A stretch of 64,000 nt of DNA from Pegethrix bostrychoides GSE-TBD4-15B (GTDB lineage: Bacteria; Cyanobacteriota; Cyanobacteriia; Elainellales; Elainellaceae): assembly GCA_019359155.1 (NCBI GenBank), contig JAHHHV010000075.1:1-64000 (forward strand), given 5' to 3'. Position 1 is the first letter of the stretch; every line of letters starts with the position of its first letter. A program made the position numbers and the translations under genes. Below the pieces are notes generated by a model. That model was not told the origin of the DNA. It saw nothing but the letters and a program-made list of their open reading frames with translations, and did not search any database. Below, piece after piece: positions 21,081 to 46,073 of the stretch.

Positions 21081-21713
21081 TCACCGCGTCCCGTAGAGTC
21101 TGTCGCCCGCATCGCCCAATCCCGGCAGGATATAGCCATGATCGTCTAGGCGCTCGTCAATTGCGGCACTGTAGATGGGCACGTCAGGATGCTGCTCGTG
21201 GAAATGCTGGATGCCTTCGGGAGCCGCCAGCAGACAGACAAATTTAATCGAAGCAGGGTTAGCTTCCTTGAGTCGATCGACCGCTGCGACTGCCGAGTTG
21301 CCCGTCGCCAGCATGGGGTCAACCACGAACATATCGCGCTGCTCCACATCCAGCGGCAGCTTCAGGTAATATTCAACGGCGGTCAGCGTTGTCGGCTCGC
21401 GGTAGAGACCAATATGCCCGACTTTGGCGGTGGGAATTAGCTCAATCATGCCGTCGAGCAAGCCCTGTCCGGCGCGCATAATTGAGACAATCACCATTTT
21501 TTTGTCGGCAGCCAGCATCGGGGCGTTCATCTCAGCCAGCGGCGTTTTGATTGGCTCTAGCTTCAGCGGCAGGTCGCGCGTCACTTCATAGGCCAGCAGC
21601 ATCGCAATTTCTTTAAGCAGACGGCGAAAATCCTGGGTGTGAGTTTCAGCCTGTCGCATGATGGTGAGCTTATGCTGTACCAGTGGATGATCAATCAGGG
21701 TAAGTTCTGGCAT
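21081..21713 (-). CDS. upp: Uracil phosphoribosyltransferase
   Basis: A 210-residue enzyme that joins uracil and PRPP to make UMP. The N-terminus [14 protein letters not shown], the PRPP-binding loop [11 protein letters not shown] and the C-terminus [17 protein letters not shown] match the family closely. The start chosen is the ATG at 21713. The frame continues upstream to 21770 but those 19 residues ([10 protein letters not shown]...) are outside the usual length. It is divergent from the URC1-like gene with a gap of about 98 bases, an arrangement that fits the URC uracil-degradation pathway, in which uracil is first turned into a nucleotide by this enzyme. Ordinary pyrimidine salvage is an equally valid role. 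Confidence 0.95.
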
Positions 21714-21811
21714 GGCTTGCTTGAGTTTAGGTGGGGATATGGGGAAGCTGAATCGCTGAACTGAAGGCACATCCGTTTAGAATACGATCATCATAAAGGC
21801 TGCACCTCACC

Positions 21812-42121: not shown

Positions 42122-42213
42122 ATCAATCCTGCGAGTCAGACTGCTCTGGATTGACCAACTCGCCCAGATCCTGCTGAACGAAGGCGGCTGCGGCTTCAGG
42201 GTTGAGCTGATTG
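42122..42213. repeat. Direct repeat, left copy (HTH gene 3' end)
   Basis: These 92 bases match 45475-45563 in the same orientation, with about ten substitutions and one 3-base indel. They bracket the ATPase-TPR cassette on its left. Confidence 0.88.
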
Positions 42214-42260
42214 TCTTCATGGCGCAACAGCAGCTCAGCACTAGAATCTCTGCTATAAGT
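42123..42260 (-). pseudogene. Truncated second copy of the small HTH gene
   Basis: On the minus strand an in-frame stretch reads NQLNPEAAAAFVQQ, then DLGELVNP and a stop. It matches the C-terminus of the intact HTH protein at 45476-45727 almost residue for residue. Further upstream, DSSAE aligns with DPSAE of the intact copy, but the rest of the HTH is absent and a stop lies at about 42261. It therefore looks like the remnant of a duplicated gene, cut off by the ATPase-TPR cassette that follows. About nine of ten bases agree with the intact copy over 42126-42213. Confidence 0.85.
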
Positions 42261-42303
42261 TCAGAGGATGCTGATCTTTTGCGTTTGATTAACCTGGAGG
42301 CTT

Positions 42304-43761
42304 ATGCAGTCTCGCCGACAAGCTCCGATTCAACTCAAACCAGCGACCTCGTTGGACGTGGTCTATAAAACCTTGCAACCCGCTCCACTGCAAACCCCGG
42401 CAGAATTGCAGGCATTTTACAGCGAGGAGATTAATAAGGTGCGCGGGGGCGACAAGATGGAACGCATCCAGCGGCGGCTCGATCGCGCGGCTAACGATGG
42501 CATTCCGTTTAAGGCTTGCGTGATGGGACATCGCGGCGTGGGCAAGTCAACCGAACTCTCGCGCTTGATTCAGCAGGTGAAGCATCAGTTTGTGGCGATT
42601 CGGATTGAGGCATTGTCGGATCTCGATCCGGGGAGCTTTCGCCCGTTGGATATTGTCTTGCTGATGATGGTGCAGGTCGCAGAACAGACGGCTAAACCGA
42701 TTGACGAGGATGGAGCCGGACAGCCTCCCTCAGATCAGCGCCTGCGGGAAATTTGGGACTGGTTTGCCACCGAAAAGGAGATCCGTGAGCAGTCGCAGTT
42801 GGCAAATTTGACGGTGGAAGCTGGGGCAGGGGTGAAGGAAAATTCCCTGTGGAACCAGGTGTTGGGGTTGTTTGCCAACCTCAAGGGCGACATCAAGTTT
42901 GCTTCGACGCGCAAAACCGAGGTGGTGGAATATCGGTTGACTCGGCTGAGTTCGCTGCTGGAGATTGCCAATCGGCTGCTAGATGATTGCAACGGGCTAC
43001 TGCTGAAAGCTACGGGAAAGCAATGGCTATTTATTGGCGAGGATTTTGATCGGGCAGGGATTCCGGATGAACGGATTACGGAGCTGTTTGTCACCTATGC
43101 GAACATTTTTCAAGCGCTGCGAACGCATCTGATTTTCAATTTGCCAATCGGACTGTACTATTCGGCGGCGGCTTCTCGGTTGCCCTTTGCCCAAGACTGT
43201 AGCTTTGTGATTCCAGATACGCCGGTTTACAGGGCGGATCATCAGCTCAACTCAAAGGGTTGTTTGGCGGTGGACGATGTTTTGAAATCGCGGATGGATT
43301 TGCGTCTGTTTGAGTCAGCTTCAGTCCGGCTTCAGGCCATTGTGGCATCGGGCGGTAACCTGCGAGATCTGTTTGCGCTGGTGAACTATGCAGCAGACAA
43401 TGCCTTGGGGCGTGGGGCAAGCCAAATTAATGCAGCAGATATGAATGACTCAGTGACGAACCTTCGCAGTGACTATCAGCGCCGACTCGGACAAAGCCCG
43501 TATGATAAAGAAGCAATTACCTATAGCCAAAAGGCCGATCTGCTGTCGCGGATTTATAACGGCGACGCTGAAGCGCAGATGACTGATCCGGTCATGTACT
43601 CTTTGCTCAATTCCAGGGCGGTACAGGAATTTGTGAACGGCAGTCGCTGGTTTGGGCTGCATCCGCTGGTGGTGGATTTGCTGGTAGGGCAAAAGCGACT
43701 GGAACCCCAGGAAGGCGAAGCAGGAGTTCGTGGTGGCACGCAATATATCCCCAAAAGCTAA
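42304..43761 (+). CDS. P-loop ATPase of an ATPase-TPR cassette
   Basis: A 485-residue AAA/STAND-like ATPase. Walker A is G75-HRGVGKST-83 (Lys81) and Walker B is around LFIGEDFDR (Glu246, Asp247). After the ATPase core (about 55-320) a helical region of about 150 residues follows. No signal peptide, membrane segment or DNA-binding domain is recognised. The start ATG has GGAGG five bases upstream. The TPR gene begins at a GTG overlapping the last 32 bases of this gene, so the two are translationally coupled and probably form a complex. The cassette sits between an HTH gene remnant and an intact HTH gene. A conflict or stress-sensing role is plausible by architecture only. Confidence 0.7.
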   Translation: MQSRRQAPIQLKPATSLDVVYKTLQPAPLQTPAELQAFYSEEINKVRGGDKMERIQRRLDRAANDGIPFKACVMGHRGVGKSTELSRLIQQVKHQFVAIRIEALSDLDPGSFRPLDIVLLMMVQVAEQTAKPIDEDGAGQPPSDQRLREIWDWFATEKEIREQSQLANLTVEAGAGVKENSLWNQVLGLFANLKGDIKFASTRKTEVVEYRLTRLSSLLEIANRLLDDCNGLLLKATGKQWLFIGEDFDRAGIPDERITELFVTYANIFQALRTHLIFNLPIGLYYSAAASRLPFAQDCSFVIPDTPVYRADHQLNSKGCLAVDDVLKSRMDLRLFESASVRLQAIVASGGNLRDLFALVNYAADNALGRGASQINAADMNDSVTNLRSDYQRRLGQSPYDKEAITYSQKADLLSRIYNGDAEAQMTDPVMYSLLNSRAVQEFVNGSRWFGLHPLVVDLLVGQKRLEPQEGEAGVRGGTQYIPKS

Positions 43762-45457
43762 CTTCCCAGAACCTAGACCCGTTCCTGCTTCGCCCGCAAT
43801 GGGGACTATAGACGACCTGGCTCAACGGCTGACGCGCTGGGGACTGCGGCAGACTGGGGGCTTGCTGCGGGTGGAATATAGCTCTGAGTTTGCCCGCCAG
43901 CAGGTGATGCAGCAGGTTAAGCAAGCGCTGCAAGCTCAGCAGATCTCGCTGGAGGAAATCAGCCTGCCCCGTGCCCAGCCGCCTGAAACCGTGGTGCGCT
44001 TTTTGCTGGAAGCCTTGGAGCAGAGCCAATCTCCGGTGGTGTCGGTGGTGGGGTTTGCTTCGGCTTTTGGGTCGCAGGTGCCGCTACCGGATGCACTGCG
44101 GTTGTTCAACTTCAACCGCGAACGGTTTGTGGCAGCGGGCAAGCTGCAAATTTGGTGGATGACTCCCAATTTTCTGCAAACGGCGATCCATGCGATGCCT
44201 GATCTAAATAGCTGGTTTAGTCAGCGCTTGCAGTTGATTGAGCCGATTGCGTTGCCTGCTGATGCCTCGCTGGCTATCACGCGCTCTGGAGAATCGACCG
44301 AGGGATTTGTCGCCAATCTGGAGGATGCCAAACGCCGCGTCTACGAGCTGTTGCAACGAGAACGAGCCGCCCAAGCTGCTGGCGCTAGTGACTTGGAGCG
44401 TCTGCAAACCTATATTCTGCCAGCTCTGGAGGCTCTGGCTGACGTGGGAGCCGAGCAATCGCTGCACGACCTGACGATGCAATTTGAAGGATTGCTCAAC
44501 CAACTGAAGTTTAGCAACACGCCAGAAATCGCTACCAGTCTGGGTCGCTTGGCAAATCTTTATGCTGCCCAAGGGCGCTACAGTGAAGCAGAACCGCTCT
44601 ATCTGCAAGCCTTGGAGATCAGACGCAGCCAGCTTGGGGCAGAGCATCCCACCACGGCCACAAGCCTCAACAATCTGGCAAAGTTGTATCGTGCTCAAGG
44701 GCGCTACTCTGAGGCAGAACCGCTCTTTCTCGATGCGCTCAACATCAAACGCCGCCAGCTTGGGGCAGAGCATCCCTCCACTGCTCTAAGCCTCAACAAT
44801 CTGGCAATGTTGTACGATTCTCAAGGGCGCTACTCTGAGGCAGAACCGCTCTTTCTCGATGCGCTCAACATCAACCGCCGCCAGCTTGGGGCAGAGCATC
44901 CCGACACGGCCTCAAGCCTCAACAACCTGGCAGCGTTGTACCATTTTCAAGGGCGCTATGGTGAGGCAGAACCGCTCTTTCTCGATGCGCTCAACATCAG
45001 ACGCAGCCAGCTTGGGGCAGAGCATCCCTCCACGGCCACAAGCCTCAACAATCTGGCTCTGTTGTACAAGTCACAAGGGCGCTATGGTGAGGCAGAACCG
45101 CTCTATCTCGATGCGCTCAACATCAGACGCAGCCAGCTCGGTGCAGAGCATCCCGACACGGCACAAAGCCTCAACAATCTGGCTAATTTGTACGATTCAC
45201 AAGGGCGCTACTCTGAGGCAGAACTGCTCTATCTCGATGCGCTCAACATCACTCGCAGCCAGCTTGGAGCAGAGCATCCTGACACGGCCTCAAGCCTCAA
45301 CAATCTGGGTGCATTTTATGTAGAGCGTGGCAACTTCGAGGCTGCCATACCGCTATTGCAACAGTCGTTAGCGATTTGCGAGCGAGTTTTGGGCGATTCA
45401 CACCCTAATACGCTGGTCCCTCGGCACTGGCTAGAGCGGGCGCAGGCAGGGGAGTGA
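43730..45457 (+). CDS. TPR-repeat protein, partner of the ATPase
   Basis: A 575-residue protein starting at a GTG (43730 or 43733) with AGGAG just upstream, overlapping the ATPase gene. Residues about 20-210 form an unrecognised domain (GGLLRVEYSSEFARQQVMQQ; LWWMTPN-like QIWWMTPNFL; MPDLNSWFSQRLQLIEP) that may be an inactive ATPase-like fold. From about 275 to 540, kinesin-light-chain-type TPR units of 42 residues run in tandem: about six near-identical copies of AEPLxLDALNIxRxQLGAEHP joined by LNNLAxLYxxQGRYxEAE. The final 50 residues are a diverged TPR. TPR arrays bind proteins; this suggests the recognition side of a two-component machine. Confidence 0.7.
   Translation: MVARNISPKANFPEPRPVPASPAMGTIDDLAQRLTRWGLRQTGGLLRVEYSSEFARQQVMQQVKQALQAQQISLEEISLPRAQPPETVVRFLLEALEQSQSPVVSVVGFASAFGSQVPLPDALRLFNFNRERFVAAGKLQIWWMTPNFLQTAIHAMPDLNSWFSQRLQLIEPIALPADASLAITRSGESTEGFVANLEDAKRRVYELLQRERAAQAAGASDLERLQTYILPALEALADVGAEQSLHDLTMQFEGLLNQLKFSNTPEIATSLGRLANLYAAQGRYSEAEPLYLQALEIRRSQLGAEHPTTATSLNNLAKLYRAQGRYSEAEPLFLDALNIKRRQLGAEHPSTALSLNNLAMLYDSQGRYSEAEPLFLDALNINRRQLGAEHPDTASSLNNLAALYHFQGRYGEAEPLFLDALNIRRSQLGAEHPSTATSLNNLALLYKSQGRYGEAEPLYLDALNIRRSQLGAEHPDTAQSLNNLANLYDSQGRYSEAELLYLDALNITRSQLGAEHPDTASSLNNLGAFYVERGNFEAAIPLLQQSLAICERVLGDSHPNTLVPRHWLERAQAGE
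44560..45325 (+). repeat. 126-nt tandem repeats encoding TPR units
   Basis: About six 126-nt units differ mainly at the LYxxQ position and at the two residues before the next SLNNLA; the rest is nearly unchanged at the nucleotide level. Such uniformity points to recent amplification or gene conversion. Confidence 0.9.
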
Positions 45458-45474
45458 GGGTGAGCGGTGGGTTG

Positions 45475-45563
45475 GTTAATCCTGCAAGTCGGGCGGTGGA
45501 TTGACCAACTCGCCTAGATATTGCTGAACGAAGGCTGCTGCGGCTTCGGGGTTGAGCTGATTG
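45475..45563. repeat. Direct repeat, right copy (HTH gene 3' end)
   Basis: This is the partner of 42122-42213 and forms the 3' end of the intact HTH gene. The same orientation on both sides of the ATPase-TPR cassette means recombination between the copies would delete the cassette. Confidence 0.88.
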
Positions 45564-45727
45564 AGAGCCTGCGTGATCTCAGCGACCGCTTCTGCGCTGG
45601 GGTCAACCTGCTCATGAAACCATCGATAGACCACATATCGCTGAACGCCAAGCATGACAGCTAGTTTGTTCTGACTAATTCCATACTGCTCTAAGACCCG
45701 CCTGAGCGCTTTACCAGCTTTTCCCAT
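45476..45727 (-). CDS. Small Xre-type HTH regulator
   Basis: An 83-residue protein. The HTH fills about 8-50 (VLEQYGISQNKLAVMLGVQR and YVVYRWFHEQVDP), followed by AEAVAEITQALNQLNPEAAA, a dimerisation-like tail. Related 80-90-residue HTH proteins of this pattern are common in cyanobacteria. It reads toward the TPR gene and is divergent from the small gene at 45825. A palindrome (TGTGCACA, 45776-45783) and TGTA/TACA words lie in the intervening promoter region and could be its operator. Confidence 0.82.
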   Translation of the reverse strand: MGKAGKALRRVLEQYGISQNKLAVMLGVQRYVVYRWFHEQVDPSAEAVAEITQALNQLNPEAAAAFVQQYLGELVNPPPDLQD

Positions 45728-45769
45728 GCCCCTGATCCTGTCAGAGGAAGATCAAGCCGTAAATAGAAA

Positions 45770-45824
45770 CATATTTGTGCACATCATGTAAGATGAGATC
45801 TGTACACTGATTTGTTTACAGATT
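45770..45824. promoter_or_regulatory. Putative operator in divergent HTH promoter region
   Basis: The gap between the divergent HTH and 82-residue protein genes holds the perfect palindrome TGTGCACA (45776-45783), flanked by ACAT and ATGT, and a TGTA...TACA pair near 45811-45826. These symmetric words are consistent with a binding site for a dimeric repressor, most simply the HTH protein itself. Confidence 0.35.
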
Positions 45825-46073
45825 ATGGCTCAAGATTTCCGATCTGACGACTTTGCAGAACTGCCGCCCGATGCGCCGCTAAATTACGACGCTGCACCCA
45901 TCCGCGAACCCGTGCGGCTGATCGTGGTCAGCTCGCGCCAAGGCGTAACCCGCATGATTCAAACCCTGCATCTGCGCGGCGTGGTGAGCGCTCACGAATG
46001 GAGCGCCCTCCAGCCAGAGCCAATGACCGGCAAATGGATGAGCGTGGCGACCAAATATCTGTCGCTGGGCTAA
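45825..46073 (+). CDS. Conserved 82-residue protein of unknown function
   Basis: A small soluble protein with an acidic N-terminus and a conserved-looking core (REPVRLIVVSSRQGVTRMIQ, then LHLRGVVSAHEWS and TGKWMSVATKYLSLG). I associate this pattern with a family of short cyanobacterial proteins but know no function. It is divergent from the HTH gene, which may regulate it. Confidence 0.62.
   Translation: MAQDFRSDDFAELPPDAPLNYDAAPIREPVRLIVVSSRQGVTRMIQTLHLRGVVSAHEWSALQPEPMTGKWMSVATKYLSLG

What the first reader, a model, noticed from the sequence alone, without database searches (positions are those of the whole stretch)
42122..45727. ATPase-TPR cassette bracketed by two copies of an HTH gene's 3' end
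Seen: 42122-42213 and 45475-45563 are direct repeats (about nine of ten bases, one 3-base indel). The right copy is the 3' end of an intact 83-residue HTH gene. The left copy reads in frame as the same C-terminus but has lost the HTH. Between them lie a P-loop ATPase and an overlapping TPR gene. Inference: the cassette was inserted beside or within a duplicated HTH gene, or is gained and lost by recombination across the repeat, as expected for a mobile defence or sensing module. The N-terminal 200 residues of the TPR protein and the C-terminal part of the ATPase match no family I can name.
Basis: partly seen in the sequence, partly recalled or inferred. Interest (0 to 1): 0.78.

Follow-up and report, generated by a model that had tools for sequence, protein, structure and literature searches.

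The report
Two-gene NLR-like sensor cassette
The cassette is a widespread but unnamed pair of bacterial genes, a working ATPase and a dead-ATPase protein carrying a fast-changing repeat "sensor arm", that looks like an immune-receptor machine split over two proteins; the HTH gene scrap beside it is only a local scar.

Summary
The repeat is real: 77/89 bases, the left copy being the last 28 codons of the HTH gene. But the cassette is not tied to it: close relatives (ATPase 65-69%) lie in other contexts without HTH gene or flanking repeat, and no empty site was found.

The substance is the gene pair. The ATPase is an ORC/STAND-type AAA+ protein; the partner's unnamed N-terminal domain folds as AAA+ without Walker A, followed by TPRs. 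The pairing is conserved across bacteria and archaea: in 60 cyanobacterial genomes 80 of 100 ATPase hits have it. Some partners continue into nSTAND1 and WD40 sensors; one ATPase relative sits in a MoxR-VMAP conflict system.

The window's TPR units belong to a pool shared with NB-ARC genes of this genome; variation concentrates on ligand-contact positions.

Best reading: a two-protein NLR-like sensor. ATP switching, ligand and output are inferred. Closest published idea: the nSTAND2 two-gene system (PMC8195603). New variant of a known kind.

The parts
42125..42213 (-). Relic of a second HTH gene: last 28 codons plus stop, HTH part lost
   Evidence: 77/89 identity to 45478-45563, in-frame C-terminus; tblastn hit at 42141-42245
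42304..43761 (+). Active ATPase, 485 aa, ORC/Cdc6-STAND-type AAA+ with lid and predicted winged-helix end
   Evidence: AF2 pLDDT 89, pTM 0.90; VIA Z 16.0 to fly Cdc6 (7jgr), 14.0 to CED-4 (4m9s), 14.0 to plant NLR WRR4A (9qlv), 12.7 to a plant NLR resistosome (6j5t); 78-row family alignment
42526..42552 (+). Walker A motif GHRGVGKST (residues 75-83)
   Evidence: G75, H76, G78, G80, K81, S82, T83 invariant in 78 relatives
43027..43053 (+). Walker B region LFIGEDFDR (residues 242-250)
   Evidence: family consensus LVIxDNLDR; D249 at least 90% conserved
43348..43371 (+). SGGNLRDL motif (residues 349-356), a candidate sensor-2-like arginine R354
   Evidence: G351 invariant, G350 and R354 at least 90% in 78 relatives; the sensor-2 role is inference
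43730..45457 (+). Partner gene, 575 aa: pseudo-ATPase domain plus TPR arm; start overlaps the ATPase stop by 32 nt
   Evidence: the same gene order in 80 of 100 cyanobacterial ATPase hits
43802..44248 (+). N-terminal AAA+-like domain without Walker A (residues 25-173); invariant Arg130 encoded at 44117-44119
   Evidence: AF2 pLDDT about 95 over this stretch; VIA Z 12.1, rmsd 3.5 over 150 residues to TnsC 7ufi; R130 invariant in 68 partners; no Pfam family
44566..45308 (+). TPR array: about six 126-nt units, a hypervariable sensor arm shared with other loci
45326..45457 (+). C-terminal cap of the TPR arm, 85.5% identical over 131 nt to the cap of a trypsin-NB-ARC-TPR gene on contig C23
45476..45727 (-). 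Intact HTH_3 gene, 83 aa; bystander from a multicopy HTH/82-aa pair
45825..46073 (+). 82-aa gene, divergent neighbour of the HTH gene, no Pfam family

Best explanation
The cassette is a two-gene module working like an NLR/STAND receptor split over two proteins. The first gene makes an active ORC/STAND-type AAA+ ATPase. The second makes a partner whose N-terminal AAA+-like domain has lost its nucleotide-binding loop and whose TPR arm is the sensor. SHOWN: conserved adjacency of the two genes, motifs in the ATPase, absence of Walker A in the partner, predicted folds, TPR units shared with NB-ARC genes, hypervariable codons at canonical ligand-contact positions. INFERRED: the two proteins form a hetero-oligomer; an invariant partner arginine (R130) may act on the ATPase active site in trans; ligand binding to the TPR concave face switches the ATPase; the output is a protective or cell-death response through an effector encoded elsewhere, since none is in the operon. 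The HTH gene and its relic are local neighbours: the relic is most simply the remains of a tandem HTH duplicate.
For: Pairing: a partner with the same N-domain lies directly downstream in almost all readable loci across Cyanobacteria, Clostridia, Chloroflexi, Planctomycetes, Deltaproteobacteria and archaea, and in 80 of 100 ATPase hits in 60 cyanobacterial genomes, several of the rest being fragments or at contig ends. No recurrent third gene. Folds. Partners: 60 of 63 match TPR_12; 24 of 80 paired partners have open frames of 1000 codons or more, and eight long frames read by eye carry an nSTAND-like NTPase and WD40 repeats, Pfam confirming nSTAND1 (E 3e-33) in one and WD40 in two. Conflict-system link: a homologue (hhalign E 1.2e-46) is fused to a putative vWA-type protein beside MoxR and VMAP-M1/VMAP-C genes on a Nostoc plasmid. 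Sensor arm: between-locus identity 87.1% equals within-locus 86.8%; label permutation shows no locus structure (p 0.62), and the window gene's head shares no DNA similarity with the other three. TPR helix-A positions 2, 9, 12 and 13 carry 88, 107, 107 and 71 non-synonymous against 1, 5, 0 and 23 synonymous pair differences.
Against: No effector domain in either protein or recurrently nearby. No phage-resistance or toxicity data. Profile comparison of ATPase with partner N-domain is not significant (hhalign probability 2-6%), so the pseudo-ATPase call rests on predicted structure and the missing motif. Sharing of TPR units between loci was not seen in the one other genome tested, G058. Codon counts do not correct for shared ancestry. 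TPR and WD40 arms also occur in regulators that are not defence proteins, such as MalT.
Confidence: 0.6

Rival explanations
1. A MalT-like transcriptional or metabolic regulator split over two genes: the TPR arm senses a cell-made ligand and the ATPase, with its winged helix, controls gene expression. Not a defence system.
For: STAND ATPases with TPR arms include MalT; TPR_MalT matches 42 of 63 partners; the model ends in a winged-helix-like element; no effector domain present.
Against: No conserved regulated neighbour; patchy, non-syntenic, partly plasmid-borne distribution; hypervariable ligand-contact positions; arms shared with trypsin-NB-ARC genes; a homologue inside a VMAP system.
Confidence: 0.2
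2. A DNA-handling AAA+ pair (ORC/TnsC-like), for example for a mobile element.
For: Best structural neighbours are ORC/Cdc6 for the ATPase and TnsC for the partner domain.
Against: No recurrent transposase or replication gene nearby; AAA+ folds are widely shared; TPR, nSTAND1 and WD40 arms point to protein sensing.
Confidence: 0.08
3. On the HTH repeat alone: it marks the integration site of a small mobile element carrying the ATPase-TPR cassette, with the displaced 3' end of the target gene left behind. (This concerns the scar, not the function, and does not exclude the best explanation.)
For: Geometry fits integration into a gene 3' end; recombination across the repeat would leave one intact HTH gene.
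Against: No integrase between the repeats; close cassettes have no flanking repeats or HTH; tandem HTH copies occur without it; the repeats have diverged; no empty site.
Confidence: 0.2

Closest known systems
nSTAND2 two-gene system (PMC8195603, section 15, Fig. 6C)
   Same: Described as a mobile two-gene operon of two STAND NTPases, one with eroded NTP-binding motifs and fused to variable modules
   Different: There the eroded protein carries GT4 or HEPN effectors; here it carries TPR, or nSTAND1 plus WD40, arms. Sequence identity to nSTAND2 could not be tested
MoxR-vWA ternary conflict systems, VMAP and iSTAND (PMC7159879)
   Same: A relative of this ATPase is fused to a putative vWA-type protein of a VMAP system; iSTAND is also an inactive STAND module
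   Different: The window pair has no MoxR, vWA or VMAP gene nearby
Bacterial NLR-like proteins (Avs, bNACHT, CARD-NLR/LypB; PMC13236601, PMC10907252)
   Same: STAND/AAA+ ATPase plus TPR-type sensor
   Different: In those, NTPase and sensor are one polypeptide, with an effector in the same protein or operon; here they are two polypeptides and no effector is visible
Fungal NLRs with highly conserved TPR/WD repeats (PMC4986451)
   Same: Near-identical repeats with variation on the concave ligand face; possible exchange between loci
   Different: Here the units are shared between genes with unrelated heads, two of them pseudo-ATPases, in a bacterium; seen in one genome only
KAP family NTPases (Pfam PF07693)
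   Same: Pfam KAP_NTPase matches 44 of 78 family members; one plasmid homologue is annotated as KAP family NTPase
   Different: P0001 itself does not reach the KAP model; no hydrophobic segment passed a simple scan in the ATPases, whereas KAP proteins typically have membrane helices (general knowledge)

Membership tests
STAND/ORC-type AAA+ ATPase | Walker A and Walker B motifs | tested here: met
   GHxGxGKST invariant, LVIxDNLDR consensus
STAND/ORC-type AAA+ ATPase | ORC/CED-4/NLR-like fold with lid and winged helix | tested here: met
   AF2 model and VIA matches Z 12.7-16 to Cdc6, CED-4 and plant NLRs
nSTAND2 two-gene system | Two-gene operon, active plus eroded STAND NTPase | tested here: met
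   conserved pair, partner lacks Walker A; AAA+-like fold by prediction
nSTAND2 two-gene system | Eroded protein fused to GT4 or HEPN effector | tested here: not met
   P0002 carries only TPRs; 60 of 63 partners carry TPR_12, and only the 25 commonest families of the scan were listed
nSTAND2 two-gene system | Conserved arginine finger in both proteins | tested here: inconclusive
   R130 invariant in partners, R330 invariant in ATPases; role not shown
nSTAND2 two-gene system | NTPase closest to Dap3/CR-ATPase/RNA12 | tested here: inconclusive
   DAP3 model hits 11 of 78, KAP 44, nSTAND5 22
Bacterial NLR (Avs/bNACHT type) | Effector, NTPase and sensor in one protein | tested here: not met
   ATPase and sensor are separate genes, no effector domain found
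Bacterial NLR (Avs/bNACHT type) | Protects against phage | not testable with these tools
   needs an experiment
MoxR-vWA ternary system | MoxR and vWA genes adjacent | tested here: not met
   neighbours are J-domain, HTH, 82-aa and chlP-type genes, read from the ORF list; one plasmid relative does have MoxR and VMAP genes
Defence systems in PADLOC 2.0.0 | Match to the system's models | tested here: not met
   window ATPase has no hit at E 0.01; weak mad8 similarity in 54 of 78 relatives; the TPR arm hits only a generic TPR model

The most novel reading that the evidence does not exclude
A widespread, unnamed class of split NLR-like receptors in bacteria and archaea, in which a catalytic AAA+ subunit and a pseudo-ATPase sensor subunit form one switch, and in which hypervariable TPR arms are exchanged by recombination between these pairs and protease-linked NB-ARC genes of the same cell, giving a shared, diversifying sensor repertoire.
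Probability: 0.35. Interest if true: 0.82.

Novelty: new variant of a known kind. Interest (0 to 1): 0.62.

Why it matters
If right, it adds a broad two-protein form to the bacterial NLR/STAND world and gives a conserved but unnamed domain a structural identity. The shared TPR arms would be a bacterial parallel to the diversifying repeats of fungal NLRs: one pool of recognition arms serving different signalling heads. That is testable in strain collections.

Tried and rejected
Empty site: sought by aligning the J-domain and chlP flanks in relatives; both flanks are intact elsewhere but were never found joined, so the site is a synteny breakpoint and no clean empty site is held. Integration footprint: no flanking repeat over 17 nt and no HTH in the close cassettes examined, two of which (L147, L150) had short downstream flanks. 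Third operon gene: none recurrent. Partner domain as a duplicate of its own ATPase: not supported by profile comparison. Phage or viral origin: no match in phages or viral contigs. MADS membership: only weak mad8 similarity. TPR unit sharing as a general rule: not seen in G058. A direct description of this TPR pair was not found in eight library searches. Supplementary files of PMC8195603 could not be read, so identity with nSTAND2 stays open. A structure prediction of the complex was not possible.

Full report
OBSERVATION. The direct repeat is real: 62/67 ungapped and 77/89 with a 3-base gap, against at most 41/67 in 20 shuffles. The right copy is the 3' end of an intact 83-residue HTH_3 gene; the left copy is its last 28 codons and stop, read in frame, with the HTH part gone. 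Recombination across the two copies would remove 42214-45474 and one repeat, leaving one intact HTH gene (from the sequence).

THE HTH GENE IS A BYSTANDER. It pairs divergently with an 82-aa gene. Both occur in many copies in relatives and in a second place in this genome, contig C85 (69% and 82% identical). Tandem HTH genes are common, and in L133 HTH copies flank two small genes that look like a HEPN/MNT pair. The four loci of this pair that were read (L131-L134) lie near STAND/NB-ARC-like TPR genes and, in several, toxin-antitoxin-like genes. The relic is therefore most simply the remains of a tandem HTH copy.

CONTEXT. The left flank up to the J-domain gene (ends 41942) is syntenic in relatives, and chlP (46250) exists in all 25 genomes searched, but the two were not neighbours in the relatives examined. 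In the closest, G004, the J-domain gene is followed by a upp-like gene and chlP has other neighbours. The block is a breakpoint, not a simple insertion. Close cassettes (ATPase 64-69%) in G011, G047, Leptolyngbyaceae RU_5_1, RM1_1_8, Tildeniella nuda and Phormidesmis sit in other contexts, with no HTH and no flanking repeat.

THE PAIR. Nearly all readable loci have, directly downstream and mostly overlapping, a gene with the same N-terminal domain followed by TPRs. A two-sided test in 60 cyanobacterial genomes found the partner behind 80 of 100 ATPase hits and an ATPase before 80 of 102 strong partner hits; several of the unpaired ATPase hits are fragments or at contig ends. This genome holds three such pairs, on C77 (the window), C66 and C84. 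There is no recurrent third gene.

FOLDS. The ATPase model (pLDDT 89, pTM 0.90) is an ORC/Cdc6-STAND AAA+ protein with lid and winged-helix-like end, matching Cdc6, CED-4 and plant NLRs. The partner N-domain model (pLDDT 85, about 95 over residues 25-173) is AAA+-like, Z 12.1 to TnsC, and its first strand runs straight into a helix without GxxxxGK[ST]; an arginine, R130, is invariant in 68 sequences. No Pfam family covers it. Profile comparison does not show that it derives from its own ATPase.

LINKS TO CONFLICT SYSTEMS. Paired partners fall into 56 with open frames under 1000 codons and 24 longer. Eight long frames read by eye show, after the pseudo-ATPase domain, an NTPase with HGxSGVGKSS-like and DQFEEFFF-like motifs, a hydrophobic stretch and WD40 repeats; Pfam finds nSTAND1 in L227 and WD40 in L227 and L228. 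On Nostoc plasmid p057_J a homologue of the ATPase (hhalign E 1.2e-46) forms the C-terminus of a protein annotated SAV_2336-related, whose N-terminal half reads as vWA-like by eye, beside a MoxR ATPase and a protein with VMAP-M1 and VMAP-C domains: a published predicted conflict system (PMC7159879). Eight plasmids carry relatives, three typed conjugative; phages and viral contigs none.

THE SENSOR ARM. The window's six 126-nt TPR units are no closer to each other than to units in three other loci of the genome: C66 (second pair), C85 (NB-ARC-TPR) and C23 (trypsin-NB-ARC-TPR). Identity is 86.8% within and 87.1% between loci; third codon positions 83.2 and 83.6%. Permuting locus labels gives p 0.62, the unit tree mixes loci, and the C-terminal cap of the window gene matches the C23 cap at 85.5%, while the heads share no DNA similarity beyond 38 nt at one array border. 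Variation sits at TPR helix-A positions 2, 9, 12 and 13, almost all non-synonymous at 2, 9 and 12; these are known ligand-contact positions (position set from general knowledge of TPR structure). Fungal NLRs show a similar pattern (PMC4986451). In genome G058 the units of a homologous array are confined to that array, so exchange between loci is not universal.

MECHANISM. Shown: pairing, motifs, predicted folds, shared repeats, where variation lies. Inferred: hetero-oligomer, trans arginine, ligand-driven ATP switching, protective output through an unidentified effector. The nearest published concept is the nSTAND2 two-gene system with GT4/HEPN effectors on the eroded protein (PMC8195603); the effector feature was tested and not met here, so I do not file the pair as nSTAND2, though it may work likewise.

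LIMITS. Loci came from a Walker A pattern scan and the best 80 hits; many contigs are short. Structures are predictions of single chains. No experiment supports defence.

Noticed in passing
window 45476-46073; C85 copy in L131 9475-10084; L132, L133, L134: A divergent pair (83-aa HTH gene and 82-aa gene without Pfam family) is multicopy in many cyanobacterial genomes, often with tandem HTH copies and near STAND/TPR and toxin-antitoxin-like genes.
   Followed up: partly
L133 8844-10527: HTH copies flank two small genes resembling a HEPN/MNT pair, the same anatomy as the window's HTH-cassette-HTH arrangement.
   Followed up: no
G028 C78 and C56; G015 C73 and C32: Some genomes hold one unpaired ATPase and one unpaired long WD40-type partner, as if the pair had been split apart on the chromosome.
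   Followed up: partly
L249 6363-6857: Behind the vWA-ATPase fusion of a Nostoc VMAP system lies a 164-aa protein with hydrophobic stretches and no Pfam family, possibly a membrane effector.
   Followed up: no
L237 2003-4057: An ATPase of the family is followed not by a TPR partner but by a 164-aa protein with a likely membrane segment.
   Followed up: no
window 21085-21719 and L136 3' end: A upp-like gene that follows the J-domain gene in the closest relative lies 20 kb away on the other strand in the window, marking a rearrangement.
   Followed up: partly
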